Shown here in pieces: positions 1,971-63,210 of a stretch of DNA of 64,000 bases; position 1 is the first letter of the stretch; every line of letters starts with the position of its first letter. The notes under the pieces are model-generated. The model searched no databases. It worked only from the letters and a program-made list of their open reading frames with translations, and was not told the origin of the DNA. The translations under genes and the position numbers were made by a program. Source of the stretch: Simplicispira psychrophila DSM 11588 (GTDB taxonomy: Bacteria > Pseudomonadota > Gammaproteobacteria > Burkholderiales > Burkholderiaceae_C); the NCBI RefSeq assembly GCF_000688255.1, contig NZ_JHYS01000003.1:62001-126000 (forward strand). The letters run 5' to 3'.

Positions 1971-2022
1971 TAAATAGATAGCGGATTACGCTTGACCCAT
2001 AAGGGCTACAAGCCATTTAAAT
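1971..2022 (+). repeat. Palindromic repeat copy R1
   Basis: AT-rich imperfect palindrome of the dispersed family. It reads AAATAGATAGCGGATTACG, then CTTGACCCATAAGGG, then CTACAAGCCATTTAAAT, so it diverges from the core AATAGCTGCTAGCGCTT...AAGCGCTAGAGGC but keeps its order and spacing. It sits between the M14 lipoprotein gene start and the rhlE terminator. Confidence 0.7.
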
Positions 2023-2060
2023 AAAAAAATACCAGGCGCTGTCAGGGGCCTGGTATTTTT
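2023..2060 (-). terminator. Intrinsic terminator of rhlE
   Basis: A 9-bp stem, ATACCAGGC (2029-2037) with GCCTGGTAT (2048-2056), is flanked by A and T runs on both sides, so it can act in either direction. On the minus strand it follows the rhlE stop codon by about 40 nt and ends in a long U tract. Confidence 0.85.
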
Positions 2061-2096
2061 GCGAAAACTGGCTAGGCAGTGCGCGGGTGCAGGGCC

Positions 2097-3866
2097 TTAA
2101 CGGCTGAACGAACCACCGCGTGAACCGCCAGGACCACGCGATCCGCCGCCATATCCACCGCCGCCGCCACTATTACCACCGCCGCCGCCACCGCCACCGC
2201 CACTGCGGAAGCCGCCGCCGCGGCGACCGCGTTCGGCCATGCTGTCCACGCTGGTGCGCATCGGGTCGGGCTGGCCGGAGGGGCCGGAGCCGCGGCTGGA
2301 TGGCATGCTGTGGCCGCCATGGGTGCCCAAATGGGCGTTATCCCGTGCCGGTTGGGCGTCGTTGAAGCGATTGACACCGGCGCCAGCAGGGCGGCCACCA
2401 CGTGCCGGACCCTGGCTGCGAGGAGCGCCAGCACCCTGGCCTGGGCCGCCACGCGGTGCACTGCTGCGTGCGCCACCGCCGCCGCCACCACCACGGGGGC
2501 CATTACCGCCACCGCCAATACTGCTACGGGGGGCATTGCCGCCACCGCTGCCAGGGCGTGCGCCGCGCTCGCCCGGTGCGCCCTTGCCAGCGCGCATACG
2601 TTCCATCATCTCGCCGCGTGCCGCCTTGGCCGCTGCCTGCATCACGTCGCGGCTCGGAGGCTTGCCGGCACCGCCCCAGATGGTCTGGCGACCCATGGCG
2701 ATAGGCTCGGCTTTTTCGCCGTCTTCCGGGCCGAAGCCGTCAATCATTTGTACTGGAATCGTCTGCTTGGTGAAGCGTTCGATGTCCATCATGAAGCCCT
2801 CTTCGTCCAGGCAGACCAGGCTCACGGCTTCGCCGCTGGCGCCGGCGCGGCCGGTGCGGCCAATGCGGTGCACGTAGTCTTCGGAAACGTTGGGGATTTC
2901 GTAATTGACGACGTGCGGCAGCTCATCGATGTCGATGCCGCGTGCGGCAATGTCAGTCGCCACCAGCGCGCGCACGTCGCCGCTCTTGAAGCCGGCCAGT
3001 GCCTGCGTGCGGGCGCTTTGGCTCTTGTTGCCGTGCAGCGCCATGGCTTGCACGCCGTTCTTGGTCAGAAACTCCGCCACGTTGTTGGCGCCGAACTTGG
3101 TGCGCGTGAACACCAGTACCTGGCTCCAGTTGTGCTCCTGGATGATGTGCAGCAGCACTTGTTTTTTCTTGCCACGACCGACCGGGTGGATCACCTGGCT
3201 GATGCGCTGCACGGTGGTGTTGCTGGGCGTGACCTGGATGCTTTGCGGGTTCTTCAGCAGCGTGGCGGCCAGGTCGCGAATCTCGTCGCTGAAGGTGGCG
3301 GAGAACAGCAGACTTTGCTTGTCCTTGGGCACCAGCGCGAGGATTTTCTTCACGTCATGGATGAAACCCATGTCGAGCATGCGATCGGCTTCGTCCAGTA
3401 CCAGTACTTGCACTGTGGACAAGTCCAGAAAGCCCTGTTGTTGCAGGTCGAGCAGGCGGCCGGGGGTTGCGACCAGAATGTCCACGCCGCGCTTGATGCG
3501 GTCGATCTGTGGGTTCATGCCGACGCCGCCAAACACCACGGTGGAGTTCAGGTCGAGGTACTTGCCGTACTGGCGCACCGACTCTTCGACCTGGGCTGCC
3601 AGCTCGCGTGTCGGGGTCAGCACTAGGGCGCGCAGGCCCTTGCCGCCAAATTTGTTTTTAGGCGCAGCTTCCAGCGACAGGCGGTGCAGCAGCGGCAGCG
3701 TGAAAGCGGCTGTTTTACCCGTGCCAGTCTGTGCGCCGGCGAGCAAATCCTGACCCGCCAGTACGGCTGGAATGGCCTGTGCCTGAATGGGTGTAGGAGT
3801 GTCGTAGCCTTGCTCGTGCACGGCCTTCATGATGGCCGGAGCCAGGTTCAGTTCGTCAAATGTCAT
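2097..3866 (-). CDS. rhlE: DEAD-box ATP-dependent RNA helicase, RhlE type
   Basis: A 589-residue helicase that remodels RNA duplexes, probably in ribosome assembly and RNA decay. The motifs appear in order: Q-motif ([10 protein letters not shown]), motif I (AQTGTGKT, about residues 44-51), [12 protein letters not shown] within [13 protein letters not shown], and the C-terminal RecA motif [10 protein letters not shown]. After about residue 400 the protein becomes a low-complexity tail rich in Gly, Arg, Ser and Pro with many RGG-like and poly-Gly runs, as in RNA-binding tails of RhlE homologues. I chose the ATG at 3866 because the helicase domain begins there ([10 protein letters not shown]). 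An in-frame ATG at 3986 would add 40 residues unlike the family. It is divergent from ettA and followed by a strong terminator. Confidence 0.93.
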
Positions 3867-4118
3867 GTGTGAAGTGCGCCCATCCGGGCGCTGGGTGTCG
3901 GCCTGTCGAGGCAACCCGTGTTGGGTTGCCGAGCCAGTGTCAGGCAGATCTGGTTCAAATGAGGGAGACCGCAATGTGTTTTGCATCGTCCCCAGCAGAG
4001 AGCTGTATTGCGCACAACTGGAGTGCGCAACAGGGGATATTGTCGCATGAGTCGATAATCGGGGTTTGCACGCGCAGCTGCGCGCCTGTTTTTGCTTTTT
4101 GAGGTTTGACTACTACCG

Positions 4119-5780
<1,662 letters not shown>

Positions 5781-5820
5781 ATTTGGCGACTCACCGCTCT
5801 TTGCCTGGAGTCGCTTCACC

Positions 5821-8202
5821 ATGTCGCCATCTGCGCCTGTTGTAAGAAACGTCTTTCGCGCCTGTGTCGTTACCGCCGTGCGCGAGAGCGAGGTCCTGAT
5901 GGTGCAACTGATCGAAGCCACGCGCACTGCCTTGATCAGCGAAGAAGCGGAGACACGCAACGTCGTGCAGCGCGACACCGCCAGCGACGCGCTGCGCCTG
6001 CTCGGCCAACATGAGGTCGGGCTGGTCAAGGCCTACCCCATGGCCCTGCTGGAAATTTTTGCCGAAGGGCCGGTCAGCACCAAAACCCGCCAGACCGACC
6101 CCACCGGCATGGATTTTGGTGAGCTGTCGCTGGTGGATGACGCCCAGGTGCAGGCGCAGGTGGAGTTGTCGCGCGCGCAGCAAGTGGCGTTGCACGCGAC
6201 CGACGTTTCACTGACCGAACTCAATGCTCTGGTCAGTTCCGCCCAAGGCTTGCAGCGCGTGCAGCCTGAACGCAACCCTCTGCGTCCTGAAAATTACATC
6301 CGCGCATTGCAGCAAGTAGTGACAGAAACCGGCGTGCCGACGCCGGTGCGCGAGGCCTGGATGCAGCACATGCGCGCGCTGCTGGGGCCGCAATTGATAA
6401 CGGTGTACCAACGCGCCGCACAAGAATTGCGCGAGCATGGCATTGAACCTGTCGGTTATGGCGTGGTGCCGCTGGCTGGTGCAGGTGGGCGCTCGGGATC
6501 GCCTGCAGAGGCGGCCAGTTACGGCGGTGCTTACGCCGACAGTGTGCAGGGCAGCTATGGCCCAGGGCATGGGCCCGGGTATGGCGCACTGCCCGTGTAT
6601 GGGCGTGCAGGTGGGGCGAGCAACTGGACCGGTGATCCTGGGATGGACGCAGGCGTGCAAGAGGCGCTGCTCACGGTTGACATCCTGCGCCAGATGCTGG
6701 CGGGCGGTGGTGATCCTTATGACACGGCGCGCAGCGGGCAGGTCACCAGTGGGCCGTTGCCTGTCGGAGCGCGTTCTTCGGTCTGGGCCACTCCCTACGG
6801 CGCAATACCCAGCGCACATGTCGGCCAAGTGGGCGGGCATTACCCCGTGGCCGTGGCCGAGGCGCTGGAAGACATTAACCACTTGGAGCGGCTGGTCGGG
6901 CGTCTGGCCCAGACCCAGCCCGAGCAGGTCTCGCGCAGCGCCTTGCTGGGAGCGCAGCGCAGCATCTATGGCGCCCTTTACGCGGGCGCAGCAGAGTCGT
7001 CGTCTGCCGCAGGGGCGGAAGTGGTGGCGCGGATGGTGGAGAACATTGCGCAAGACTCACGTCTGCTGCCGCCAGTGCAGCGTGCCGTGCAAGATCTGGA
7101 GCCGGCGATTTGCCAGCTGGTGCGCCATGACCCACGTTTTTTCAGCGACAGCAACCATCCGGCGCGCCGTTTGCTCGATGAGCTGACGCAGCGCAGCCTA
7201 GCGTTCACGGCAGAGGACGCGCCGGGCTTTAGCCGCTTCATGCGCCTGACCAACGAGGTGGTCAGCCACTTGACGGGTCTTGAAATCACCAGCGCTGCGC
7301 CGTTTGAAGCCGTACTCAAGGCCTTGCAGACAGCCTGGGCTGCGCAAGAAAAAAAACTCCAGGCCCTGCGCCAGGCACAAGAAGAACAACTGCTGCAGAC
7401 CGAGCAGCGCCAGATGCTGGCCGAGAAAATTGCCACTGGTATTCGCGCCTTGGCTGGCGTGGCGCAGGTGCCGCCCGATGTGATGGACTTTGCCGCCGGC
7501 CCCTGGGCCGATGTGGTAGCACTGGCACAGACCAGCGATGTCGGCAAAAGCATGGACGACCCGGGCGGTTATGTCGCCCTGGTGTCCGATTTGTTCTGGA
7601 GCGTGCAGCCCGACCTAGCGCGTGCCGACCCGGCGCGGCTCAAAGCCCTGATTCCGGTGTTGCTGGAAACCTTGCGCACCGGGCTGCATAGCATCGACTA
7701 CCCGCAAGCCGGTAGCAGTGCTTTTTTGGCCCGCCTAGTGGCTTTGCACCGGCCTCTGCTGGCAGCGCCAGAGAAACCCCGGGCCGCACCGCCATCCGCA
7801 GCCCCCGCAGCGCCGATATCCGCACAGCCGCAGCCGCTGGCAGTCGCCGCCATGCCCATGCCTATGCCGGTCGATGGGGTGCTGGCGCCGGAGCAGCAGC
7901 TTCCCGAGATGGAGACAAAATTTGTCGTCGGCGCGTGGATTGAGTTGACCACCAACCGCCGCAAAGTGCGCACGCAGTTGACGTGGGCCAGCCCGCACCA
8001 CACGCTGTTTTTATTCACCGCTGCTGATGGCAGCACCCAGTCCATGACGCGGCGCATGCGCGACAAGCTGGCGGCTGAAGGCACGCTGCGCGTGATCTCG
8101 GCCCAGCCGGTGGTGGCGCGCGCGATCGACGCGTTGGGTGCATCGACCCAGGCGACTTCGTCCACTGGATCCAAGCGGCGCGCTCCGCCGACGAACGACT
8201 GA
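5821..8202 (+). CDS. DUF1631 domain-containing protein
   Basis: A 793-residue protein of the DUF1631 family, common in Beta- and Gammaproteobacteria and without an established biochemical role. No signal peptide or membrane segment is evident, so it is probably cytoplasmic. The N-terminal part is helical. Residues about 220-270 form a Gly/Tyr/Pro/Ala-rich low-complexity stretch. A helical region with a coiled-coil-like Gln/Glu/Lys patch lies near residues 500-540. A Pro/Ala linker leads to a C-terminal domain (KFVVGAWIELTT onward) that resembles the PilZ-like end of this family. The ATG at 5821 lies after the ettA stop; the same frame stays open upstream but only as a shadow of ettA. It converges on the TAXI-type gene with only about 20 nt between their stops. 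Confidence 0.85.
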   Translation: MSPSAPVVRNVFRACVVTAVRESEVLMVQLIEATRTALISEEAETRNVVQRDTASDALRLLGQHEVGLVKAYPMALLEIFAEGPVSTKTRQTDPTGMDFGELSLVDDAQVQAQVELSRAQQVALHATDVSLTELNALVSSAQGLQRVQPERNPLRPENYIRALQQVVTETGVPTPVREAWMQHMRALLGPQLITVYQRAAQELREHGIEPVGYGVVPLAGAGGRSGSPAEAASYGGAYADSVQGSYGPGHGPGYGALPVYGRAGGASNWTGDPGMDAGVQEALLTVDILRQMLAGGGDPYDTARSGQVTSGPLPVGARSSVWATPYGAIPSAHVGQVGGHYPVAVAEALEDINHLERLVGRLAQTQPEQVSRSALLGAQRSIYGALYAGAAESSSAAGAEVVARMVENIAQDSRLLPPVQRAVQDLEPAICQLVRHDPRFFSDSNHPARRLLDELTQRSLAFTAEDAPGFSRFMRLTNEVVSHLTGLEITSAAPFEAVLKALQTAWAAQEKKLQALRQAQEEQLLQTEQRQMLAEKIATGIRALAGVAQVPPDVMDFAAGPWADVVALAQTSDVGKSMDDPGGYVALVSDLFWSVQPDLARADPARLKALIPVLLETLRTGLHSIDYPQAGSSAFLARLVALHRPLLAAPEKPRAAPPSAAPAAPISAQPQPLAVAAMPMPMPVDGVLAPEQQLPEMETKFVVGAWIELTTNRRKVRTQLTWASPHHTLFLFTAADGSTQSMTRRMRDKLAAEGTLRVISAQPVVARAIDALGASTQATSSTGSKRRAPPTND

Positions 8203-11211: not shown

Positions 11212-11592
11212 TTAGTGGCCGCTGGCGAGCACGGTGATACTGCCGGTCATGCCCGCTTGGTAGTGGCCGGGGATCAGGCAGGCAAAGTCAAACTGGCCGG
11301 CTCGCTTGAAGTTCCACACCATATCGCCCTGGCAGCCGGGTAACACATGCGCCATGTGCAGTGCATCGTCGTGTGCCATGCCGGGGTGTATTGCTGCATT
11401 TTTTGGGCGTGTGCCTGGAGCGTGGCTGGTGTGCCCAGCACGATCTCGTGCATGGCTTGTCCTTGGTTGACGACGTGCAGGCGCACGGTTTCGTCCATCT
11501 GAACTTGGATGGTGTGGCCTATTTTGGTGGCCAAAAGCGGTGCTAACGCTTGCCAGTAAAGCGCAAGCAGCTATTAATTTAATATTTTTCAT
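11212..11592 (-). pseudogene. Cupredoxin-family copper protein, disrupted by frameshifts and an internal deletion
   Basis: The pieces of a plastocyanin/azurin-like protein can be recognised in two different frames. The signal peptide MKNIKLIAACALLASVSTAFG starts at 11592. The middle (IQVQMDETVRLHVVNQG, MHEIVLGTPATLQAHAQKMQQ) is in another frame. The end (HPGMAHDD, GDMVWNF, FDFACLIPGHYQAGM) returns to the first frame. The switches fall near 11530-11540 and 11389-11391. In addition, the family usually has roughly 15 residues between VQMD and ETVRLHV that are absent here, so this looks like real decay and not one sequencing error. The copper ligands of the C-terminal loop (Cys, His, Met) remain in the last piece. 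The signal-peptide codons coincide with repeat copy R2. Confidence 0.8.
11531..11585 (-). repeat. Palindromic repeat copy R2, inside the cupredoxin pseudogene
   Basis: On the minus strand it reads AATAGCTGCTTGCGCTT, TACTGGC, AAGCGTTAGCACC, then GCTTTTGG. This is a full-length match to the family in the same sense as the gene. It encodes the hydrophobic core of the signal peptide. Confidence 0.75.
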
Positions 11593-15240: not shown

Positions 15241-15702
15241 ATGGCCCATGAAATCCCTGCATGGCGCATTGGTGATGCTGCGCGGCGCTCGGGTGTGAAC
15301 GCCGCCAACATCCGCTATTACGAGAAAGAAATGCTGCTCAAGCCTTGTAGTAGAAGCGCTAATAGCTATCGTTTATATAGCGATGAGGATATCCACCGGC
15401 TGCGCTTCATTCGCCTGTGCCGGGCCATGGACATGTCGCTGGACGAGGTGCGCACCCTGCTGGCGCTAAACAGCGACTTGCCGGCGGATGTACACACTGC
15501 CTGCCACACGCTGGACCAGCACCTGGAGCATGTGCGCGCGCGCTTGCAAGAATTGCAGGCCCTGGAGCAGGATTTGCGTGCGCTGCGCAGCCGCTGCGAT
15601 GGCACGGATGACCATTGCCACGTCATTGACGCTTTGCACGCGCAGGCAGATGCGCAGACGGACGCGCTAGAGCGCACGGGCGGAGCCAAACGCCACGTAT
15701 GA
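15241..15702 (+). CDS. cadR: MerR-family Cd(II)/Pb(II)-responsive transcriptional regulator
   Basis: A 153-residue MerR-type activator. The N-terminal winged helix is clear (WRIGDAARRSGVNAANIRYYE), followed by the second DNA-contact region (SYRLYSDEDIHRLRFI) and a long dimerisation helix. Cys88, Cys119 and Cys126 fit the three-cysteine metal site of CadR/PbrR proteins. The C-terminus has extra His residues (DDHCHVIDALHAQAD). The start at 15241 is preceded by GAAGG inside the shared operator. The codons for residues 31-45 overlap repeat copy R4 and are unusually AT-rich; they introduce Cys36 and the run CSRSANS. The gene should sense Cd, Pb or Zn and switch on cadA. CadR and PbrR cannot be told apart from sequence alone. 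Confidence 0.88.
   Translation: MAHEIPAWRIGDAARRSGVNAANIRYYEKEMLLKPCSRSANSYRLYSDEDIHRLRFIRLCRAMDMSLDEVRTLLALNSDLPADVHTACHTLDQHLEHVRARLQELQALEQDLRALRSRCDGTDDHCHVIDALHAQADAQTDALERTGGAKRHV
15333..15375 (-). repeat. Palindromic repeat copy R4, inside cadR
   Basis: On the minus strand it reads ATAGCTATTAGCGCTT, CTACTAC, AAGGCTTGAGCAGC, close to copy R8. It lies antisense to cadR and is read through in frame. Because the surrounding protein motif (RSANSYRLY) is itself family-like, part of the similarity could be chance, so confidence is moderate. Confidence 0.55.
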
Positions 15703-15711
15703 CTTACTATT

Positions 15712-15767
15712 AAAATAGTAGCTATAAGCGCAATGCAGTAAAGCGTTTATGGCTGTTTTGACCATAA
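15712..15767 (+). repeat. Palindromic repeat copy R5
   Basis: Full-length copy: AAAATAGTAGCTATAAGCGC, AATGCAGT, AAAGCGTTTATGGCTG, TTTTGACC. It fills nearly all of the gap between cadR and the MlaE-type permease gene and ends about 20 nt before that start codon. Confidence 0.85.
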
Positions 15768-15785
15768 TTTTAGTATGATGCGTCC

Positions 15786-21524: not shown

Positions 21525-21577
21525 CCCGGTTCCAAGACCCCGCTTTGATGTCACCAAGGCTTCGAACAAAAATACCT

Positions 21578-21625
21578 ATCAAATATGCCTATAACCTTTT
21601 AGATATAAGCGCTTCATGCTATTTT
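21578..21625 (-). repeat. Palindromic repeat copy R6
   Basis: Minus-strand reading: AAAATAGCATGAAGCGCTT, ATATCTA, AAAGGTTATAGGC, ATATTTGAT. It sits between the converging 3' ends of the DUF3482 GTPase and phasin genes. Confidence 0.8.
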
Positions 21626-21652
21626 ATAAATAGCGTTTGCGTGCTGGTTGTT

Positions 21653-27599: not shown

Positions 27600-27706
27600 A
27601 CAGGCCCTTCCCAGCCACAGTCGCATCCGCCAACCGGTTCAGCCGTGCCGCGGAAGGTTTCTAAACCAGCTAATGCTTTCCAGAGGAAAGCGGAGGTCAG
27701 CGGTAT
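27600..27706 (+). promoter_or_regulatory. Structured sucA 5' leader (candidate sucA RNA motif)
   Basis: The leader contains CCTTCC (27605-27610) able to pair with GGAAGG (27652-27657). A perfect 7-bp hairpin GCTTTCC-AGA-GGAAAGC (27675-27691) directly abuts the ribosome-binding site GGAGG (27692-27696). A conserved structured element called the sucA RNA motif is known upstream of sucA in Burkholderiales, and its position fits. I matched position and pairing only, not a covariance model. Confidence 0.5.
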
Positions 27707-30583
27707 ATGAGCGAGACAACGTCCGTCTATCAAGCCTATCAAGGCAACACCTATCTCTTTGGCGGCAATGCGCCGTATGTCGAAGAGATGTATGAGAACT
27801 ACCTGGAAAATCCAGGCAGCGTTCCAGATACTTGGCGCGATTATTTTGATGCATTGCAGCATGTGCCTGCCGCCGATGGCAGCGACGCCAAAGACGTGCC
27901 CCACCTGCCCGTCATCAGCGCTTTCGCCGAGCGCGCCAAACAAGGTGGGACCCAGGTCGTTGTCGCCAGTGTAGATGCTGAAATGGGCCGCAAGCGCACC
28001 GCAGTGCAGCAGCTGATTGCTGCCTACCGTAACGTGGGACAGCGCTGGGCCGACCTCGATCCGCTCAAGCGCACCGAGCGCCCGGCCATCCCGGAACTGG
28101 AACTCTCGTTCTACGGTTTCAGCGATGCCGATCAGGAAACCGTATTCAACACCAGCAACACGTTCTTTGGCAAAGAGGCGATGCCACTGCGCGAGTTGAT
28201 GAATGCACTGCGCGAGACCTATTGCGGCACCTTGGGCGCCGAGTACATGTATGCCACCGACCAGAACCAAAAGCGCTGGTGGCAACAAAAGCTCGAAACC
28301 ATCCGCTCCAAGCCGGTTTACAACGCCGAGCAGAAAAAGCACATCCTCGATCGCCTGACGGCTGCCGAGGGTCTGGAGCGCTTCCTGCATACCAAATACG
28401 TCGGGCAAAAGCGTTTCTCGCTGGAGGGCGGTGAAAGCTTCATCGTCGCCATGGATGCGCTGATCCAATCCGCTGGTCTCACGGGCGTACAAGAAATCGT
28501 CATCGGCATGGCCCACCGTGGTCGCTTGAACGTTCTCGTCAACTCCCTGGGCAAAATGCCCAAAGACCTGTTTGCCGAGTTCGATCACACCGCCCCCGAA
28601 GACCTGCCATCGGGCGACGTCAAATACCACCAAGGTTTCAGTTCGGATGTCTCCACGGCCGGCGGCCCGGTGCACCTGACTCTGGCCTTCAACCCCTCGC
28701 ACCTTGAAATTGTCAACCCAGTGGTTGAAGGCTCGGTGCGCGCCCGTATGGACCGCCGCGGCGACCCGCATGGCAAGCAGGTGCTGCCTTTGCTGGTGCA
28801 TGGCGACGCGGCTTTTGCTGGTCAGGGTGTCAATCAGGAAACGCTGGCACTGGCCCAGACCCGTGGTTATTCCACGGGCGGCACGGTGCACATCATCATC
28901 AACAACCAGATTGGTTTCACCACCTCGGATCCGCGCGACAGCCGTTCCACGCTGTACTGCACCGATGTGGTCAAGATGATCGAGTCCCCGGTGCTGCACG
29001 TCAACGCGGATGATCCAGAAACCGTGGCGCTGGCTATGCAGTTGGCGCTCGAGTTCCGCATGGAATTCCGCAAGGACATCGTGGTGGACATCATCTGCTT
29101 CCGCAAGCTGGGCCACAACGAGCAGGACACGCCCGCGCTGACGCAGCCGCTGATGTACAAGAAAATTGGCGCCCACCCCGGCACGCGCAAGCTGTATGCC
29201 GACAAGCTGGCCGCGCAAGGCCTGGGTGAGACGCTGGGCGACGATATGGTCAAGGCTTACCGCGCCGCCATGGATGCCGGCAAGCACACGGTCGATCCGG
29301 TGCTGACCAACTTCAAGAGCAAATATGCCGTCGATTGGACCCCTTTCCTGGGCAACAAGTGGACGGATGCCGGTGACACCGCCATTCCACTGAGCGAATG
29401 GAAGCGCTTGGCCGAGAAGATCACCACCATTCCTGACAGCGTCACGCCGCACCAATTGGTGAAAAAGGTGTATGACGACCGCGCTGCCATGGGCCGTGGC
29501 GATGTTCCCGTGGACTGGGGCATGGGCGAACACATGGCTTTTGCTTCGCTGGTGGCTAGTGGCTTCCCGGTGCGTCTGTCGGGCGAAGACTGCGGTCGGG
29601 GCACCTTCACGCACCGCCACTCAGTCATCCATGACCAGAAGCGCGAAAAATGGGACATCGGTACCTATATTCCGTTGCAGAACGTCGCCGAGAGCCAAGC
29701 GCCGTTTGTCGTTATCGACTCTATCCTGTCCGAAGAAGCGGTGCTGGCCTTTGAATACGGCTACGCCTCTAACGACCCGAACACACTGGTGATCTGGGAA
29801 GCGCAGTTTGGTGACTTTGCCAATGGTGCACAGGTCGTGATCGACCAGTTCATCGCTTCGGGTGAAGTCAAGTGGGGACGCGTCAACGGCATCACGCTGA
29901 TGCTGCCGCATGGCTACGAAGGCCAGGGCCCTGAGCACAGCTCGGCGCGCTTGGAGCGCTTCATGCAGCTGTCGGCCGATGCGAACATGCAAGTGGTGCA
30001 GCCGACCACGGCCAGCCAGATCTTTCACATCTTGCGTCGTCAGATGGTGCGCAATTTGCGCAAGCCGCTGATCATCATGACGCCCAAGTCGCTGCTGCGC
30101 AACAAGGATGCAGCGTCGCCCCTGTCCGAGTTCACCAAGGGTGGCTTCCAGACCATCATTCCAGAGCAGAACCAGGACGTGGTGCGCAACGCCGCCAAGG
30201 TCAAGCGTATCGTGGTCTGCTCCGGCAAGGTGTATTACGACCTGGTGAAAAAGCGCACCGAGAACGCCGACAACAGCGTCGCCATCATTCGCGCCGAGCA
30301 GCTCTATCCGTTCCCGCACAAGGCCTTTGCCGCTGAAATCAAGCGCTACCCCAACGCCAATGAAGTGGTGTGGTGCCAGGACGAGCCGCAAAACCAGGGC
30401 GCCTGGTTCTTCGTGCAGCATTACATCCACGAGAACATGCGCGATGGCCAAAAGCTCGGTTACTCCGGCCGCGCGGCATCCGCTTCGCCTGCCGTGGGTT
30501 ATTCGCACCTGCACCAGGAACAGCAAAAGGCGTTGATTGAAGGCGCCTTCGGCAAACTCAAGGGTTTTGTCCTGACCAAGTAA
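27707..30583 (+). CDS. sucA: 2-oxoglutarate dehydrogenase E1 component
   Basis: A 958-residue thiamine-diphosphate enzyme that decarboxylates 2-oxoglutarate and passes the succinyl group to the lipoyl arm of E2 in the TCA cycle. The N-terminus (SVYQAYQGNTYLFGGNAPYV) is the E2-binding-type segment. Family blocks include IGMAHRGRLNVLVN, the ThDP site HGDAAFAGQGVNQETL, NNQIGFTT, the transketolase-like EGQGPEHSSARLERF, and VWCQDEPQNQGAW near the C-terminus. It starts ten nt after a clear GGAGG. It leads the sucA-odhB-lpdA operon, with odhB 48 nt downstream. Confidence 0.98.
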   Translation: MSETTSVYQAYQGNTYLFGGNAPYVEEMYENYLENPGSVPDTWRDYFDALQHVPAADGSDAKDVPHLPVISAFAERAKQGGTQVVVASVDAEMGRKRTAVQQLIAAYRNVGQRWADLDPLKRTERPAIPELELSFYGFSDADQETVFNTSNTFFGKEAMPLRELMNALRETYCGTLGAEYMYATDQNQKRWWQQKLETIRSKPVYNAEQKKHILDRLTAAEGLERFLHTKYVGQKRFSLEGGESFIVAMDALIQSAGLTGVQEIVIGMAHRGRLNVLVNSLGKMPKDLFAEFDHTAPEDLPSGDVKYHQGFSSDVSTAGGPVHLTLAFNPSHLEIVNPVVEGSVRARMDRRGDPHGKQVLPLLVHGDAAFAGQGVNQETLALAQTRGYSTGGTVHIIINNQIGFTTSDPRDSRSTLYCTDVVKMIESPVLHVNADDPETVALAMQLALEFRMEFRKDIVVDIICFRKLGHNEQDTPALTQPLMYKKIGAHPGTRKLYADKLAAQGLGETLGDDMVKAYRAAMDAGKHTVDPVLTNFKSKYAVDWTPFLGNKWTDAGDTAIPLSEWKRLAEKITTIPDSVTPHQLVKKVYDDRAAMGRGDVPVDWGMGEHMAFASLVASGFPVRLSGEDCGRGTFTHRHSVIHDQKREKWDIGTYIPLQNVAESQAPFVVIDSILSEEAVLAFEYGYASNDPNTLVIWEAQFGDFANGAQVVIDQFIASGEVKWGRVNGITLMLPHGYEGQGPEHSSARLERFMQLSADANMQVVQPTTASQIFHILRRQMVRNLRKPLIIMTPKSLLRNKDAASPLSEFTKGGFQTIIPEQNQDVVRNAAKVKRIVVCSGKVYYDLVKKRTENADNSVAIIRAEQLYPFPHKAFAAEIKRYPNANEVVWCQDEPQNQGAWFFVQHYIHENMRDGQKLGYSGRAASASPAVGYSHLHQEQQKALIEGAFGKLKGFVLTK

Positions 30584-48140: not shown

Positions 48141-48158
48141 GATAGAATAATTTACTAT

Positions 48159-48210
48159 AAATTTAATAGCTGCTAGCGCACGCATCTAAAGGGCTAGAGG
48201 CCTAAAGGGC
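48159..48210 (+). repeat. Palindromic repeat copy R10
   Basis: AAATTTAATAGCTGCTAGCG, CACGCATCT, AAAGGGCTAGAGGCC, TAAAGGGC. It lies between the aminotransferase terminator and the CoA-transferase start codon, so it overlaps the promoter or leader of the latter. Confidence 0.85.
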
Positions 48211-48236
48211 TATAAAAAAACCGCCCAAAGGCGGTT
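48211..48236 (-). terminator. Intrinsic terminator of the aminotransferase gene
   Basis: AACCGCC (48219-48225) pairs with GGCGGTT (48230-48236) around a four-base loop. On the minus strand it ends in seven U residues, about 25 nt behind the aminotransferase stop. Confidence 0.9.
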
Positions 48237-55245: not shown

Positions 55246-57144
55246 ATGGCGCTGTTGCAGATCTCCGAACCCGGCCAGTCTCCCGACCCGCACCAACGGC
55301 GCATTGCCGTGGGCATTGACCTTGGCACCACGCATTCTCTGGTCGCCGCTGTACGCAACGGGGTGGCCGAATGCCTGGCCGATGACCAGGGCCGTGTGCT
55401 TCTTCCTTCCATCGTGCGCTACCTGGCCGATGGCAAACGCCAGATCGGCCATGAAGCGGCCGCGCAGCAGCAGCACGATGCACACAACACCATCGCCTCG
55501 GTCAAACGCCTGATGGGCCGCGGTCTGGGTGATATTGCCGATCGGAAAAAGCTGCCCTACGATTTGGTCGGAGCCGACACCGCGGGCGCACCCGCCAGCG
55601 GCATGGTCAGCGTCGTGACGGCGGGCGGCACCAAGTCGCCGGTGGAGGTCAGCGCCGACATTCTGGCCACGCTGCGCTACCGTGCGGAAGATACCTTCAA
55701 CGATGACCTGTACGGTGCTGTCATCACCGTTCCGGCCTACTTTGACGATGCCCAACGCCAAGCTACCAAAGATGCGGCACAACTGGCCGGCATTCATCTG
55801 CTGCGCCTGATCAACGAACCCACGGCGGCGGCGATTGCTTATGGCCTGGACAACGCCAGCGAAGGCGTTTACGCCGTGTACGACTTGGGCGGCGGCACTT
55901 TTGATATTTCGATCCTGCGCCTGACGCAGGGCGTGTTTGAAGTGATTGCTACCGGCGGCGACTCGGCCCTGGGCGGCGACGACTACGACAGTGCGCTGGC
56001 CGATTGGGTGTTACAGCAACTGGGTCTGAGCGCCCAGACTGCGGCCGACAAAGCCGCCGTGCGCCTAGCCGCACGGGCCTGTAAAGAAGCCTTGACTACT
56101 ACTGAAACAGTAGCTTATAGCGCTTGTCTGGCGGGCGTTACAGCCCGTTTTGATGTAAAAAAAGACGATTTTGATGCTGCCACTGCGCACCTGACGGCGC
56201 GTTCACTGGCCGCCGTGCGGCGTGCACTGCGCGATGCTGAACTCACGCCGGGCGAAGTGCAGGGCGTGGTGATGGTGGGCGGCTCCACCCGGATGCCGCA
56301 GGTGCTGCAGGCCGTGGGCGCATTTTTTGACCGGGCGCCGCTGACCAATCTGAATCCCGATGAAGTGGTGGCTTTGGGCGCCGCGCTGCAAGCCAATCAG
56401 CTGGCCGGCAACAATACCGCCGGCGATCTGCTGTTGCTGGACGTGATTCCGCTGTCGCTGGGCGTGGAAACCATGGGTGGCCTGGTCGAGCGCATCGTGG
56501 CACGCAACGAAACCATTCCGACTGCCAAGGCGCAAGACTTCACCACCTACCAGGATGGCCAGACCGCGCTGGCCATCCATGTGTTGCAAGGCGAGCGCGA
56601 TTTGGTGCAAGACTGCCGTAGCTTGGCGCGCTTTGAGTTGCGCGGCATTCCACCGATGGCCGCCGGGGCTGCACGCATCCGCGTCACTTTTACCGTCGAT
56701 GCCGATGGCCTGCTGAGCGTCAATGCCAAAGAGTTGGTCAGCGGTGTCGAAGCCCGCATTGACGTCAAGCCTTCGTATGGCCTGAGCGATGCGCAAATTG
56801 CCCAAATGTTGCAAGACGGTTTTGCCACGGCGACCCAAGACATCCAGGCGCGCGCCCTGGCCGAAGCGGGCGTCGATGCGGATCGCCTGCTGATTGCTAC
56901 GCAAAGTGCGCTCAATGCAGATGGCGATTTGCTCGACAGCGCCGAGCGCACCGCCGTGGACGCACTGATGGCCGAGTTGCGTAGCCTGCGCAGCAAGGGC
57001 AGCACTAGCGAAAGTGGTATTGATGCCGCTACGCTGGAAGCCGCGACGCAAGCCCTGGCCAAAGGCACGGAACTCTTTGCCGCAGAGCGCATGAACCGTG
57101 GCATTCGCCAGGCGCTGGCCGGTAAAAACGTGCAATCCCTCTAA
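55246..57144 (+). CDS. hscA: Fe-S assembly chaperone HscA
   Basis: A 632-residue Hsp70-type ATPase specialised for releasing clusters from IscU. The ATPase domain has [61 protein letters not shown] and [11 protein letters not shown]. The peptide-binding domain starts at [13 protein letters not shown] and accepts the IscU LPPVK motif. Residues about 287-305 ([18 protein letters not shown]) are encoded by repeat copy R11 and lie in the ATPase domain. The protein is somewhat longer than E. coli HscA (616). Start at 55246; the frame is open further upstream only as a shadow of hscB. Confidence 0.96.
56106..56160 (+). repeat. Palindromic repeat copy R11, inside hscA
   Basis: ACAGTAGCTTATAGCGCTT, GTCTGGC, GGGCGTTACAGCCCG, TTTTGATGTAAAA. 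A full-length copy in the same sense as the gene, encoding about 18 residues without a stop. Its AT-rich tail ends in a long A run, unlike the GC-rich flanks. Confidence 0.8.
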
Positions 57145-58242: not shown

Positions 58243-58267
58243 TTTGAGGCTTGCGAAAAATGCAGAC

Positions 58268-58342
58268 GGGTGATTAGCTCAGCGGTAGAGCACTGCCTTC
58301 ACACGGCAGGGGTCACATGTTCGATCCATGTATCACCCACCA
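58268..58342 (+). tRNA. tRNA-Val (anticodon CAC)
   Basis: 75 nt including the encoded CCA. The acceptor stem is GGGTGAT/ATCACCC, the D arm TTAGCTCAGCGGTAGAGC, the anticodon arm CTGCC-TTCACAC-GGCAG (anticodon CAC, decodes GUG), and the T arm ACATG-TTCGATC-CATGT. Confidence 0.95.
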
Positions 58343-58385
58343 ATTTTGCGTCGCAACTCCTGTATTCGGGCTCTTCCCGTTTATC

Positions 58386-58460
58386 GGGTCGTTAACTCAG
58401 CGGTAGAGTGCCACCTTCACACGGTGGAAGCCAGTGGTTCGATCCCACTACGACCCACCA
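58386..58460 (+). tRNA. tRNA-Val (anticodon CAC), second gene
   Basis: 75 nt including CCA. The acceptor stem is GGGTCGT/ACGACCC, the anticodon arm CCACC-TTCACAC-GGTGG (anticodon CAC) and the T arm AGTGG-TTCGATC-CCACT. It has the same anticodon loop as the preceding tRNA gene but different stems, so it is not a recent tandem copy. 43 nt separate the two. Confidence 0.93.
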
Positions 58461-58580: not shown

Positions 58581-59366
58581 ATGGCACACCGCGCTCTTTC
58601 GACACCGCCACGCCTTCGTTTTGATCGACTCGATGCCCTGCGCGGCTTGGCCATGGTGTGGATGACCCTGTTTCATTTTTGTTTTGACCTGAGCTATCTA
58701 GGTTACTGGTCGCAAGACTTTCTTGCTGATCCAGTCTGGACGCTGCAGCGCACGGCCATCGTCAGCCTGTTTTTGTTCTGCGCCGGCTTGGGGCAGGCGG
58801 TGACCTTGCAGCAAGTCCAAGGATGGGCGCGTTTTGCCCGGCGCTGGGTGCAGATTGCCGGCTGTGCGCTGCTGGTCAGCGTAGGCTCGTGGTGGATGTT
58901 TCCGCACAGTTTCATTTATTTTGGTGTGTTGCATGGCATGGTGGTGATGCTGCTGCTGGCACGCGCTACGGCCGGTTGGGGCCGCTGGCTGTGGCTGGCG
59001 GGTGGCGTGGCGCTTTTGCTGCCTTGGGCTGCACACTGGGCGTTGTCCGGGCCTTGGGTGCAATGGGCCATTGACTTCAATGCCAACTCTCTGAACTGGC
59101 TGGGGCTGGTGTCGCGCAAGCCCTTTACCGAAGACTATGTGCCGGTGTTGCCGTGGCTGGGCGTGATGTGGTGGGGGCTGGCAGCCGGTCAATGGCTGCT
59201 GCTCCACAGGCCGTGCTGGCTACAAGGTGCGCTGCCGCCAGCGTTACAACCACTGCAGCCGCTGGCGACGTTAGGCCGCTGGAGTCTGAGCTACTACCTA
59301 CTGCACCAGCCCGTGCTGCTGGGCGTGTTGTTCGCTGGGGGCTGGGCTCTTGGGCGCGCACCATGA
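58581..59366 (+). CDS. DUF1624 membrane protein (heparan-alpha-glucosaminide acetyltransferase-like)
   Basis: A 261-residue polytopic inner-membrane protein. It opens with RFDRLDALRGLAMVWMTLFHFCFDL, the typical start of DUF1624 and related acyltransferase-3-like membrane enzymes. Helices follow at TAIVSLFLFCAGLGQAV, WVQIAGCALLVSVGSWWM, FGVLHGMVVMLLLA, WLWLAGGVALLLPWA and later segments. The end LGRWSLSYYLLHQPVLLGVLF is also characteristic. An acyl-transfer function is inferred from the family only. I chose the ATG at 58581 because the frame upstream passes through the tRNA gene. Confidence 0.83.
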   Translation: MAHRALSTPPRLRFDRLDALRGLAMVWMTLFHFCFDLSYLGYWSQDFLADPVWTLQRTAIVSLFLFCAGLGQAVTLQQVQGWARFARRWVQIAGCALLVSVGSWWMFPHSFIYFGVLHGMVVMLLLARATAGWGRWLWLAGGVALLLPWAAHWALSGPWVQWAIDFNANSLNWLGLVSRKPFTEDYVPVLPWLGVMWWGLAAGQWLLLHRPCWLQGALPPALQPLQPLATLGRWSLSYYLLHQPVLLGVLFAGGWALGRAP

Positions 59367-59389
59367 AAAAACGCGGCCGAAGCCGCGTT
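59364..59389 (-). terminator. Intrinsic terminator of the parvulin gene
   Basis: On the minus strand AACGCGGC, tetraloop TTCG, GCCGCGTT, then a run of T. It overlaps the stop codon of the convergent DUF1624 gene and lies about 55 nt behind the parvulin stop. Confidence 0.9.
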
Positions 59390-59444
59390 GTGGTGGTGCT
59401 GCGGTGAGTGCTAGGCGCTGTCCCACCGGCAAGGTTGACTCGAT

Positions 59445-60230
59445 TTAATCGACCTTGGCCTTGCTGCGCAGGTCTTCTTGGAATTTTGACAATTTTTGTT
59501 GTTGCAGTTGCTGAGCAATCTGGGGCTTGACTTCGTCGAGCTTAGGCAATTGTGCTTCGCGCACGTCGTCCAAGCGAATGATGTGCCAGCCAAACTGGGT
59601 CTTGATCGGCGTTTGCGTCATTTGGCCTTTGCCCAGTTTGACCAGGGCTTCGGTGAATTCTGAGACGTAGCTGCTGGGGTTGGCCCAATCGAGGTTGCCA
59701 CCATTGGCACCAGAGGCTGGATCTTTCGATTGTTTTTTGGCAATGTCAGCGAACTTTGCGCCCTTTTTGATGGAGGCAATGATCGCCTTGGCCTGGTCTT
59801 CTTTTTCTACCAGGATGTGGCTGGCTTTGTATTCTTTGCCGCTGCTGGCGGCGGCAAATTTGTCGTATTCGGCCTTGATTTCGGCGTCGGTGACGAGATT
59901 TTTTGTCTGGTAATCGTTAAACAGTTCGCGGATCAGGATGGTCTGGCGGGCCAGTTCCATTTGTGCTTTGTAATCGCTCGAAGTTTCGAGGCCGCGCTTT
60001 TGCGCTTCCTGCATGAAAATTTCACGGGCGATGATTTCTTCCTTGATCTGGCCTTCGATTTCTGGGGTAATTTTGCGGCCTGAACGCTCTACCTGTTGCT
60101 TAAGCACTTCAATGCGCTCTTTGGGAATGGGTTTGCCGTTGACGATGGCCACATTCTGGGCCAGAACCGGCAGGGCCACAGAGCCCAATAAAGCGGCGGC
60201 GACAAGGCCGGACAGAAGCTGTTTCTTCAT
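59445..60230 (-). CDS. Periplasmic parvulin-type peptidyl-prolyl cis-trans isomerase
   Basis: A 261-residue foldase with a signal peptide (MKKQLLSGLVAAALLGSVAL through VLAQ). The N-terminal part is a SurA-like chaperone helix bundle (VAIVNGKPIPKERIEVLKQQ). The parvulin domain is at about residues 135-228: KASHILVEKEDQA, SGANGGNLDWAN and PIKTQFGWHIIRLDDVR. It ends in a Lys/Gln-rich helix. Similar proteins are annotated PpiC or PrsA-like. Its own terminator follows. Confidence 0.9.
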   Translation of the reverse strand: MKKQLLSGLVAAALLGSVALPVLAQNVAIVNGKPIPKERIEVLKQQVERSGRKITPEIEGQIKEEIIAREIFMQEAQKRGLETSSDYKAQMELARQTILIRELFNDYQTKNLVTDAEIKAEYDKFAAASSGKEYKASHILVEKEDQAKAIIASIKKGAKFADIAKKQSKDPASGANGGNLDWANPSSYVSEFTEALVKLGKGQMTQTPIKTQFGWHIIRLDDVREAQLPKLDEVKPQIAQQLQQQKLSKFQEDLRSKAKVD

Positions 60231-60304
60231 TCGAAATCCAAAATAAGAGAGATGAGAGTGCAGGTTAATTGCCGGTAAGCAAGAGTGCTTTCAAGGGGGC
60301 CTGA

Positions 60305-60607
60305 TCAGAGAATTTCTATCGCAATGGCATGGGCGCCGCGGTCAATAAATTCTTGCAGCGCATCATACACAAGGCGGTGCTGGCGCACGCGTGCCAAACC
60401 GGTAAAGGAAGGTGACGCGATACGTACTCGAAAGTGGGTGCCAAAACCGGTGCCGTTGGCACCAGGGTGTCCAGCGTGGAGATGGCTTTCGTCCAGCACT
60501 TGCAGCGTGGTCGGGGTCAGCGTCGTGCGCAGGCTGCGCTCCATGGCCGGAGCGATGAGGGCGTTGCTGTGGGCGTCGGTGGCAGGGTCGAGGTCGGGGT
60601 AGCTCAT
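60305..60607 (-). CDS. BolA family protein
   Basis: A 100-residue protein with the BolA fold: LQVLDESHLHAGHPGAN, HFRVRIASPSFTG and RQHRLVYDALQEFI. BolA-type proteins work with monothiol glutaredoxins in iron-sulfur handling or act as regulators. Its start overlaps the yciB stop by four bases, so the two are co-translated. Confidence 0.92.
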   Translation of the reverse strand: MSYPDLDPATDAHSNALIAPAMERSLRTTLTPTTLQVLDESHLHAGHPGANGTGFGTHFRVRIASPSFTGLARVRQHRLVYDALQEFIDRGAHAIAIEIL

Positions 60608-61257
60608 GCTTGGGGGTCCTTGGCGTTGGCGGTAGTGTTGTCGGTGTCCTTGACATAGCGGCCCAGGAACAAAGCCTGTGCAATGACAAAGGCAAACATC
60701 AGCCCCATGCCGCCAAACAGTTTGAAGTTGACCCAGGTGTTGGTGTCAAAGTTGTAGGCCACCCACAGGTTGAGTACGCCCATGACAGCAAAAAAGCCTG
60801 TCCAGCCCCAGTTCATGGCGCGCCAGGCGGATTCGGGCAGTTCCATTTGCGCACCCATCAGGCGCTTAATCAGGTTAACGCGGAAAAACACTTGGCCGAT
60901 CAGCAAGGCACCACCCATCACCCAGTACAGCACCGTGGGCTTCCATTTGATGAAGTTCTCGCTGTGAAAGTAGATGGTGGCACTGCCCAGCACCGTCACC
61001 AACGCCAAGCTGACCCACAGCATGGTGTCCACCTTGCGGCCCTTCGCCTTGATCCAGAGGATTTGTGCCAGCGTGGCTACGATGACCACCACGGTGGCTA
61101 GCAGTACCGGTGCTTCGGCCATGCCGACCACGCCGCCGGCGACCATAAAGCCCAGCCATTCAGTGGCGGTGCTGGCGGCCCATTCCTTGTGGCCGTCGGC
61201 GTACTTGAACATGCCGAAGAAAAGGGCAATCGGCAAAAAGTCAAACAATATTTTCAT
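60604..61257 (-). CDS. yciB: Inner membrane septation protein YciB (IspA)
   Basis: A 217-residue protein with five or six membrane helices. It begins KILFDFLPIALFFGMFKYAD, typical of YciB. Later blocks are FIKWKPTVLYWVMGGALLIGQ and LPESAWRAMNWGWTGFFAVMGVLNLWVAY, here recognisable by the WxxMNWGW motif. YciB takes part in cell division and envelope maintenance. The C-terminus (after residue 190) is polar and Thr/Asn-rich. The stop overlaps bolA. Confidence 0.94.
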   Translation of the reverse strand: MKILFDFLPIALFFGMFKYADGHKEWAASTATEWLGFMVAGGVVGMAEAPVLLATVVVIVATLAQILWIKAKGRKVDTMLWVSLALVTVLGSATIYFHSENFIKWKPTVLYWVMGGALLIGQVFFRVNLIKRLMGAQMELPESAWRAMNWGWTGFFAVMGVLNLWVAYNFDTNTWVNFKLFGGMGLMFAFVIAQALFLGRYVKDTDNTTANAKDPQA

Positions 61258-61321
61258 CGAGCGATTATCACCAAGAGCCAGGCCGGCAAGTACGGTCGGC
61301 GTAATCCGGTTGGTAACGGTT

Positions 61322-61732
61322 TCACCGGGGGGTGAAATCCAGCGCGGCGGAATTCATGCAGTAGCGCAGGCCGGTGGGCGTGGGGCCGTCGGGGAAGACG
61401 TGGCCCAGATGGGCACCGCACTGGGTGCAGACGGTTTCGGTGCGCACCATGCCGTGCGCGCGATCGACGTTTTCAGTGATGGCATCGCCATTTGCTGTTT
61501 CTGAGAAGCTCGGCCAGCCGCAGCCGGCATCGAATTTGGTTGCCGATTCGAACAATTTGGCGCCGCAGCAGACGCAGTGGTAGCTGCCGTCCGCCCATTG
61601 ACTGTTGTATTTGCCGGTGAACGGGCGCTCGGTGGCCGCATGGCGCGTCACTTGCAGAGCGCCCGGTTCGGCGCCTTTGTCCTGCAGTACGGTCTGCCAT
61701 TGGGCCTCGGTTTTTTGAATGGGAAAGGTCAT
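61322..61732 (-). CDS. msrB: Peptide-methionine (R)-S-oxide reductase MsrB
   Basis: A 136-residue repair enzyme that reduces methionine-R-sulfoxide. Two zinc-binding CxxC pairs are present (CVCCGAKLF and CTQCGAHLG), and the catalytic Cys lies in [23 protein letters not shown] is also conserved. The ATG overlaps the selO stop (ATGA), indicating a two-gene operon linked to redox damage control. Confidence 0.96.
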
Positions 61733-63210
61733 GATGAGCAGCTGATGGAAATGGTGGACGCCCAATCGGGCGGAAAGTCGGCATAGGCTTCAAAGCCCGG
61801 ATGCTCGTCAAATGGGCGTGCCAACAGGGTTTGCAAGGTCTGCAGTTCCGACAGGTCGCCTTGCTGCGCGGCGCGAATGGCTTGTTCCCCCAAATGGTTG
61901 CGCAAAATGAAGCGGGGATTGGTTTTTAGCATCAAATCGGCCGCTAGCCCTTTATCAGTAAGCGCTAGCAGCTCTTGATACGATAGCAGCCAAACATCCA
62001 GTGCAGCGCGGTCAGCAAACAGGTCACGCACCGGTTCAAAGTTGTGCTGTGCCACGGCGTGCGACAGACGGCGCCAGAAGATGGTGTAGTCCACGCCGTT
62101 CTCGACCAGCAGGCGCAGCCCGTTGTCCATCACATCGGCCTCGCCCGTCTGGGCGCTGGACAGACCCAGCTTGGCGCGCATCAGCGCCATGAACTCCGCC
62201 GGAAAGCGGGTGCGATAAGAATCCAGCGCTGCCATGACCACGGCTGGCGCACCGATCAGCGGTTGCAGTGCCTGACCCAGGCGCAGCAGATTCCAGTAAA
62301 CGACGTTGGGTTGGCGATCAAAGGCGTAGCGCCCCTGCGTGTCGCTGTGGTTGCAGATGTGGTTGGGCACAAAGGCATCCAAAAACTGGAAAGGCCCGTA
62401 ATCGATGGTCAGACCCAGAATGCTCATGTTGTCGGTGTTGAGCACGCCGTGGCAAAAGCCCACCGCCTGCCACTGCGCGGCCAGCGTGGCAGTGCGCTCG
62501 CTGACGGCCTGCAGCAGGGTGGCGTAGGCGTTTCCCTGGAATTCGCTGCTCTTGCGGCACGCTGGGTAGTGCCGGTCGATGACATAGTCGGCCAGTTGGC
62601 GCAGCTCAAGCAATTGGTTGCGCGAGGCAAAATGCTCGAAATGGCCAAAGCGGATGAAGCTGGGTGCGGTGCGGGTGACGACGGCGGAGGTCTCGATAGT
62701 TTCGCGCCGCACCGGGTTGGGCGAGCCAGTGACGCACAGCGCACGCGTCGTGGCAATGCCCAGCGCGTGCATGGCTTCGCTGCATAAAAATTCGCGGATG
62801 CTGGAGCGCAGCACCGCCCGACCATCGCCCATGCGCGAGTACGGTGTCAGGCCACTGCCTTTGAGCTGTACCTCGGTGCCGGCAGCGGTTTCGCCTAGCA
62901 ATATCGCGCGGCCGTCGCCCAGCTGGCCGGCCCAGACACCAAATTGGTGGCCGCTATAGACACTGGCCAGCGGATCGGTGCCGGCCAAGCGCTGGTTGCC
63001 CGAGAACACTTGCAACGCTGCGTCGGAATGGAACCAGTCCAGATCCAGCCCCAACTCCTGCGCCAGCCCGTCATTGCGCCCGACCCAGTGCGGTGCGGGC
63101 AGCGGCGTCGGGGCCAGACGGGTAAAAAACGCCGGGCTAAGCGCCGAAAAAGTGTTGTTCCAAGCCAGACCGCAGTCGGCGGCTACAGCATCGTGGACGT
63201 GTAAATTCAT
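61729..63210 (-). CDS. selO: Protein adenylyltransferase SelO
   Basis: A 493-residue pseudokinase-like enzyme that AMPylates proteins during oxidative stress. Family blocks seen are [69 protein letters not shown] and the end ISCSS, which corresponds to the C-terminal Cys/Sec of the family. Codons for about residues 411-429 ([18 protein letters not shown]) coincide with repeat copy R12. I chose the ATG at 63210. msrB follows with a four-base overlap. Divergent from the acyl-CoA ligase gene. Confidence 0.95.
61925..61980 (-). repeat. Palindromic repeat copy R12, inside selO
   Basis: On the minus strand: AGAGCTGCTAGCGCTT, ACTGAT, AAAGGGCTAGCGGCC, GATTTGATGCTAAAAA. A full-length copy in the same sense as selO. 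It is read in a different frame from the copy in hscA. Confidence 0.8.

What the first reader, a model, noticed from the sequence alone, without database searches (positions are those of the whole stretch)
1971..61980. Twelve-copy dispersed palindromic repeat family across the window
I find twelve related elements of about 50 bp (1971, 11531, 12897, 15333, 15712, 21578, 26298, 33451, 45650, 48159, 56106 and 61925), seven in minus and five or six in plus orientation depending on how R4 is read. Shared core: AATAGCTGCTAGCGCTT, 5-8 variable bases, AAGCGCTAGAGGC, then a TTTGAT-like tail. The two halves can form a stem. Divergence between copies shows they are old or change quickly; no flanking target duplications or transposase are visible. 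A density near one per 5 kb is high for a streamlined region. They could be non-autonomous mobile elements, RNA stem-loops or protein-binding sites.
Basis: partly seen in the sequence, partly recalled or inferred. Interest (0 to 1): 0.75.

Follow-up and report, generated by a model that had tools for sequence, protein, structure and literature searches.

The report
Hairpin DNA repeats at gene ends
A family of related 71-letter hairpin sequences, at least 150 in this bacterium, sits mostly just after genes; it is old, keeps its hairpin shape at one well-compared site while the letters change, and seems to copy hairpin tips from one repeat to another, which makes it an unusual cousin of known bacterial REP repeats.

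Summary
The family is real. A covariance model finds 11 of the 12 listed copies at E <= 5e-5; the twelfth (15333, in a MerR gene) is doubtful. The unit is about 71 bp with sharp ends: a 41-nt hairpin with a 7-nt loop and AT-rich shoulders. The genome holds at least 150 copies (capped). Of 24 genus genomes, 21 have 63 or more matches and 3 none; two of those three are placed, among carriers. Of 83 intergenic copies 77 follow a gene end. At lpd-zapE a copy occupies the same site in 18 of 20 fetched genus loci and in other taxa, with 17-18 same-branch compensatory changes against 1.1 in the control. One tip variant is frequent only in the window genome, G020 and G008, with a few in G010, and stands in place of other tips at shared sites. 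The REP tag and a RAYT link were tested and not found. Best reading: an old REP-like family that homogenises by tip copying; route and benefit are inferred. Terminator function and a transposase partner are not shown.

The parts
1961..2031 (+). copy 1, beyond a terminator-like hairpin (by eye) at the 3' end of gene 2097-3866(-)
   Evidence: R2 37.8 bits, E 4.9e-5; orthologous copy with another tip in G020
11521..11591 (-). copy 2, intergenic by my gene caller
   Evidence: R2 52.7 bits
12881..12951 (+). copy 3, intergenic
   Evidence: R2 63.2 bits
15316..15386 (-). doubtful copy 4, inside MerR-type gene 15241-15702(+)
   Evidence: R2 30.7 bits, E 0.0014
15701..15771 (+). copy 5, between the MerR-type gene and an MlaE-family gene
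   Evidence: R2 64.6 bits; orthologous copy in G001
21569..21639 (-). copy 6, between convergent genes
   Evidence: R2 54.8 bits
26290..26360 (-). copy 7, between convergent genes
   Evidence: R2 56.4 bits
33442..33512 (-). copy 8, lpd-zapE gap; the orthologous site of the covariation test
   Evidence: R2 72.4 bits
45637..45707 (+). copy 9, directly after the T-run of a conserved terminator-like hairpin
   Evidence: R2 44.9 bits; (by eye)
48149..48219 (+). copy 10, AC tip subfamily (1 mismatch)
   Evidence: R2 66.3 bits
56093..56163 (+). copy 11, inside hscA (55246-57144)
   Evidence: R2 58.7 bits; HscA; no net length difference to zero-copy G002 and G005
61922..61992 (-). copy 12, inside a selO/ydiU gene (61729-63210, -)
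   Evidence: R2 67.8 bits; SelO/YdiU; another tip in G020

Best explanation
It is an old family of about 71-bp, REP-like palindromic DNA repeats of the Comamonadaceae. Shown: at least 150 resident copies, mostly just downstream of genes; at the sites that could be compared they are inherited in place; a 41-nt hairpin with a 7-nt loop keeps its pairing at one deep orthologous site while its letters turn over; a tip variant (AC type) has reached tens of sites in a few related genomes and almost none elsewhere in the genus; at shared sites, one of them inside a gene, that variant stands where relatives have another tip, with no change of length. Inferred: the hairpin is the unit of copying. When a copy is single-stranded during replication or repair its arms anneal to another copy and the tip is rewritten from it (ectopic gene conversion or template switching). 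The family so evolves in concert, with rarer gain and loss of whole copies, and pairing is kept because only hairpins go on exchanging. Gene 3' ends are where such hairpins do least harm.
For: Family: 150 scored matches, cap reached, all E <= 3e-5. Orthology at lpd-zapE: 18 of 20 fetched genus loci and 16 of 52 tested loci of other taxa at E <= 3e-4. Structure: 41 both-side-changed cells against 14.7 by shuffle, 0 of 500; slid versions at most 19; on the tree 17-18 compensated same-branch changes against mean 1.1 and maximum 7 of 1200 deranged pairings. Spread: AC tip (<= 1 mismatch, both strands) 68 in G000, 110 in G020, 41 in G008, 8 in G010, 0-1 in the other 22; control 0-1. Tips: 17 clean orthologous pairs differ by 0.371 per site in the tip and 0.16-0.22 in the other parts; lpd G008/G020: 0 of 29 in the 5' part and left arm, 7 of 13 in the tip; selO: G000 and G008 one type, G020 AC. 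G008 has its own common type (TT left, GGGC right) in 18 of 30 copies, 8 of 108 in G000, 0 of 27 in G020 (G008 and G020 samples were picked, not random). Place: 77 of 83 (p 8e-7 and 9e-11 against window gaps).
Against: No donor copy was traced for any changed tip; re-insertion into a resident copy, or local hypermutation, would look alike. Correction of imperfect palindromes on themselves could also make paired changes without selection. G008 and G020 are incomplete MAGs (64% and 61%). Of the eight G000-G020 sites, four were fetched because G020 is AC there; of the six that differ in type, two (lpd, L015/L189) have a G020 tip near but not equal to the AC form. G000-G008: only 2 of 9 clean sites differ in type. 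Among seven sites of close relatives G003/G022/G023 two have strongly changed tips and five have few changes. The iscS-iscU gap shows that whole copies are also gained or lost. Covariation may reflect an RNA instead.
Confidence: 0.45

Rival explanations
1. The copies are RNA elements at transcript 3' ends (terminators or 3'-protecting hairpins) kept by selection on the RNA; dispersal is ancient.
For: Position at gene ends; covariation at lpd-zapE; at that site zero-copy relatives hold a terminator-like hairpin, others a classical terminator or no insert; at that site GU in the transcribed strand was gained 14 times against 6 for the mirror mismatch (21 against 6 in raw cells).
Against: No orientation preference (27 same, 31 opposite); wobble bias not transcription-dependent over 84 tandem copies; 14:6 is not significant (p 0.12); canonical terminators are not rarer beside copies (8 of 38 against 8 of 102, p 0.04 in the other direction); a copy lies between iscS and iscU and some lie in genes; for 65 tandem and in-gene copies both strands fold alike (z -2.1), while for 25 convergent or divergent ones the forward strand folds better; RNAalifold finds only 2 pairs in the 52 paralogues.
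Confidence: 0.27
2. A true mobile REP or MITE moved in trans by an HUH (Y1) transposase or RAYT; tip swaps are re-insertions into resident copies.
For: Spread of one variant; presence/absence at iscS-iscU; the RAYT-like gene of G000 has a model-detected copy at its 3' end and a second one, by eye, on its other side.
Against: Of 21 RAYT-like loci 3 have a model match at E <= 0.001 within the fetched 2-3.3 kb (L059, L079, L330), 19 of 21 carry an unrelated GGGGTCAGAGTC motif, 9 in 1.45 Mb background; 3 of the 17 other Y1 loci also have a copy; RAYT-like genes occur in the three zero-copy genomes; no clean empty site was seen.
Confidence: 0.15
3. The copies are DNA binding sites of a nucleoid, repair or segregation protein, lost in the zero-copy clade.
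For: All-or-none distribution in the genus; almost invariant TAGCT and AGCGC blocks.
Against: Much of the stem and the loop change as long as they pair; no factor was identified; ProQ, the one candidate tested, does not track the pattern.
Confidence: 0.1

Closest known systems
REP elements, GTAG- and CGTC-tagged (PMC3733652: abstract and first of eight parts read, term search in the rest)
   Same: Short palindrome, high copy number, mostly downstream of genes between tandem or convergent ORFs, some inside genes, both orientations
   Different: About 71 bp against 20-40 bp; no GTAG or CGTC tag in the consensus; not linked to RAYT genes
REPINs mobilised by RAYTs (PMC3116915, search listing only)
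   Same: Non-autonomous family with sequence classes inside one genome
   Different: The 11 solid window copies stand alone, none closer than 1.3 kb; a few pairs were seen elsewhere (L101, L195, L318; AC matches 43 bp apart on opposite strands in G000 and G020); the RAYT has its own motif
Bacterial MITEs such as ERIC, RUP, Correia (review PMC10969869, passages read)
   Same: Dispersed, non-coding, mostly intergenic, foldable
   Different: No terminal repeats of a known IS recognised, no target duplication seen; same site across genera at lpd-zapE
Rickettsia palindromic elements (mentioned in the passages of PMC3733652 and PMC10969869)
   Same: Palindromes in frame inside genes
   Different: In hscA (against G002, G005) and selO (against G002) no net added length
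Intrinsic terminators
   Same: Hairpin at gene 3' ends; at lpd-zapE a U-rich stretch follows in the transcribed strand in several genomes (by eye)
   Different: A 71-bp sequence family without strand preference, sometimes beside a separate terminator

Membership tests
REP elements sensu PMC3733652 | palindromic repeat in high copy number | tested here: met
REP elements sensu PMC3733652 | mostly downstream of coding regions, between tandem and convergent ORFs | tested here: met
   58 tandem, 19 convergent, 6 divergent, 7 inside, of 90
REP elements sensu PMC3733652 | GTAG or CGTC tag at one end | tested here: not met
   GTAG at the stem foot 3 of 52 and 2 of 37 (ATAG 45 and 31); CTAC in the 5' shoulder 4 of 52 and 5 of 37; CGTC/GACG outside the core 1 of 52 and 3 of 37
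REP elements sensu PMC3733652 | unit of 20-40 bp | tested here: not met
   information from -15 to +55, about 71 bp, in 90 copies; the hairpin alone is 41 nt
RAYT-associated REP/REPIN | repeat flanks the RAYT gene | tested here: not met
   3 of 21 RAYT-like loci with a match; another motif in 19 of 21. RAYT-like is my label for PF01797 matches with a frame of about 234 aa or more
RAYT-associated REP/REPIN | repeat and RAYT occur together | tested here: not met
   RAYT-like genes also in zero-copy G002, G005, G007
MITE | terminal inverted repeats, target duplication, clean empty sites | tested here: inconclusive
   weak ATTTA/TAAAT ends; no clean empty site; iscS-iscU polymorphic without a clean edge
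Intrinsic terminator | hairpin plus U-tract in the transcribed strand | tested here: inconclusive
   seen at lpd-zapE in several genomes; no orientation preference genome-wide
RNA family in Rfam 15 | match at the gathering score | tested here: not met
   only the sucA motif and two tRNAs in the window; the permissive threshold was not run
Hairpin tip copied by gene conversion | donor-identical tract at an orthologous site | tested here: inconclusive
   six of eight G000-G020 sites read differ in type (4 of 6); four of these six tips fit the AC tip, two are near it; no donor traced

The most novel reading that the evidence does not exclude
A repeat family that spreads mainly by overwriting: hairpin tips are copied from one resident repeat to another without insertion, so dispersed sites evolve in concert and a genome can switch tip type or, in one clade, lose the family; pairing is preserved because hairpins are what is exchanged.
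Probability: 0.35. Interest if true: 0.75.

Novelty: new variant of a known kind. Interest (0 to 1): 0.55.

Why it matters
REPs are usually explained by RAYT-driven transposition. Here is a family of similar number and position with neither the REP tag nor a RAYT link, held at one site across genera by paired changes, with a spread of one variant limited to a few related genomes and a nested clade without the family. It offers a test of copying between dispersed hairpins, and zero-copy sister genomes as a natural control for what such repeats do to gene expression. Copies inside hscA, selO and other genes also warn annotators.

Tried and rejected
RAYT as partner: 3 of 21 loci with a match, another motif in 19 of 21, present in zero-copy genomes. 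ProQ as RNA partner: present in zero-copy genomes too. A replacement family in G002 built on its lpd hairpin: 27 and 31 matches against 25 and 25 in the control. Terminator replacement: not supported. Transcription-strand wobble: no genome-wide signal. Small second stem (ACTATT/AATAG): 73-74% of cells pair but do not covary. Two extra pairs in the loop: helped at lpd, not in paralogues. Element ends as ribosome-binding sites: 2 of 14 against 6 of 104, p 0.24. Plasmids: one query no match, another 7 records, 2 of them Comamonadaceae. Covariation in the 12 window copies: none above shuffles; that set held a doubtful copy and one in the wrong orientation. In the 52 paralogues four of five measures exceed nearly all shuffles, but one slid version (-3) has more both-side cells (36 against 21) and RNAalifold gives 2 pairs. 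The pair table is not used because partners were matched by shared 20-mers and some are wrong; only its type counts are. That in-gene copies arose by overwriting is not claimed: in hscA and selO weaker matches exist in G001 and G013 (34.4 and 29.1 bits; 43.8 and 30.2 bits), so loss by substitution in the zero-copy clade is as likely.

Papers: the searches listed no description of this family by title or abstract (lists were capped at 15-20). PMC3733652 has none of Acidovorax, Delftia, Polaromonas, Variovorax, Comamonas, Rhodoferax, and PMC12306157 none of Acidovorax, Comamonad-, Burkholderi-, Betaproteobacteria, Delftia, Variovorax, in the main text; PMC2817692 and PMC2755013 were term-searched without a lead. 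Subscription papers are not held.
Full report
Observation. A plain consensus scan finds all twelve places. Model R2, from 52 copies of the same genome (A4), finds 11 of them at E <= 4.9e-5, ten of which were in its training set, and the one near 15333 at E 0.0014. That one lies in a MerR-type gene with an uninterrupted domain. Model R1, from the window copies, scores 150 matches in the genome, its cap, all at E <= 3e-5; the window density (11 in 64 kb) would give about 600. Controls: the pattern AGCGCT-N9-AGCGCT occurs at 36 places against one reversed; three genus genomes and 16 genomes of other families have no match at E <= 0.001. Of 150 genomes drawn from the family 48 have at least one (stricter filters, at most 32 scored per genome).

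Anatomy. In 90 copies information rises at -15 and falls after +55 from the first base of AATAGCT, with little outside. The unit is about 71 bp: a 5' shoulder with ACTATT, a 17-pair imperfect stem around a 7-nt loop (41 nt), and a 3' shoulder ATTTGAC. The 52 copies of A4 and the 37 of A5 align without gaps; they were taken as windows of equal length. Two tip types share the genome, TT in 41 and AC in 42 of 90. Copies are related, not near-identical: mean core identity 0.66 in G000.

Place. With a simple gene caller of my own, 90 copies fall as 58 tandem, 19 convergent, 6 divergent and 7 inside genes; against tandem transcription 27 same, 31 opposite. Divergent gaps make 39% of the bases of window gaps of 60 bp or more. 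For the best 50 copies the median distance to the nearest gene 3' end was 17 bp. Twice in the window a copy follows the T-run of a terminator-like hairpin; at 45.6 kb that hairpin is kept in four genomes, zero-copy G002 included, and the copy is in three (by eye). Over five carrier genomes canonical terminators are not rarer beside copies (8 of 38 against 8 of 102).

Age and structure. The copy between lpd (Pfam; the name is inferred) and zapE (AFG1 ATPase) is at the same site in 18 of 20 fetched genus loci; the two without it are G002 and G005, with another hairpin. Of 80 named loci, 52 were given to the model: 16 have it at E <= 3e-4, two weakly (L136 0.077, L164 0.17), one by eye (L177, Paracidovorax konjaci); by record title they include Acidovorax, Rhodoferax, Alicycliphilus, Oryzisolibacter and Curvibacter. 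Others have a classical terminator or a short gap. A5 holds 18 genus rows with the window and 19 others; L095 (same as L105 at this site) and the second tandem copy of L101 were left out, the three weak ones kept. Pairing survives change: 41 both-side-changed cells against 14.7, slid versions at most 19. On a tree of lpd and zapE, with 35 of the 37 rows, 17-18 compensated same-branch changes occur in 12 inner pairs, against 1.1 on average and 7 at most in 1200 deranged pairings. In the 52 paralogues the signal is weaker and mixed, in the 12 window copies absent.

Spread and loss. So the family was lost there, or changed beyond the model. The AC tip has 68, 110, 41 and 8 matches in G000, G020, G008 and G010 and 0-1 in the other 22 genus genomes; G020, G008 and G010 are incomplete, and G010 was not placed on the tree, while G008 and G020 are next to the window genome. 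At lpd-zapE and inside selO, G000 and G008 have TT tips and G020 an AC or AC-like tip, with the same length and similar shoulders. Of eight G000-G020 sites read six differ in type (four of the eight were fetched because G020 is AC there); of nine clean G000-G008 sites two differ, of two G008-G020 sites both. Differences are densest in the tip (0.371 per site against 0.16-0.22; 17 pairs, lpd and selO counted three times each). Among seven mapped sites of the closer relatives G003, G022, G023 two have strongly changed tips (70603 and 72511) and five few changes; copies whose flanks could not be mapped are not counted, and one G006 copy has unrelated sequence at the G011 site. A presence/absence case is iscS-iscU: copy in G001 and G008, none in G000, G013, G009, G005, G002, without a clean edge.

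In genes. Seven of 90 copies are in frames read as genes, among them HscA and SelO in the window (uvrA, uvrD, thiL, ileS and purL for other loci are my reading). In hscA (G002, G005) and selO (G002) the zero-copy relatives align with no net difference in length at the site.

Partner. Of 21 RAYT-like loci three have a match at E <= 0.001 and 19 have GGGGTCAGAGTC; the gene is also in zero-copy genomes. The REP tags are absent from the consensus.

Verdict. The family works like REPs in number and place but fails defining tests. Evidence is strong for a structure kept at the lpd-zapE site and for a recent spread of one tip variant, moderate for tip replacement at resident sites, and only inferential for the molecular route and any benefit. 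The RNA reading is the main rival.

Noticed in passing
L059:1060-1917 (G000 contig C1, about 184.4-185.3 kb) and 20 further RAYT-like loci: RAYT-like Y1 transposase gene with GGGGTCAGAGTC beside it in 19 of 21 loci, 9 in 1.45 Mb elsewhere: probably its own terminal repeat.
   Followed up: partly
L260:895-968 and L308:427-500: A family-like sequence coincides with first codons that look like a signal peptide in two species; chance or domesticated copy.
   Followed up: no
hits H4-H7: A 30-bp piece of the hairpin lies under an annotated DUF1010 gene in four plasmid records of E. coli, Klebsiella and Enterobacter; origin unknown.
   Followed up: no
L318:1258-1331 and 1385-1458 (G008): Two copies in opposite orientation 127 bp apart where G000 has one (L050). 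AC matches 43 bp apart on opposite strands also occur in G000 (C18, 38453 and 38496) and G020 (C16, 19975 and 20018).
   Followed up: no
window 27621-27702: SucA RNA motif upstream of the gene at 27707.
   Followed up: no
window 58268-58460: Two tRNA-Val(cac) genes in tandem, 74% alike over 77 nt.
   Followed up: no
iscS-iscU gap in L268 (G001) and L272/L283 (G008): G001 and G008 share a very similar copy and gap although G008 is otherwise closer to G000, which has no copy there: recombination between species is possible. L272 and L283 are two overlapping-looking contigs of the same MAG.
   Followed up: no
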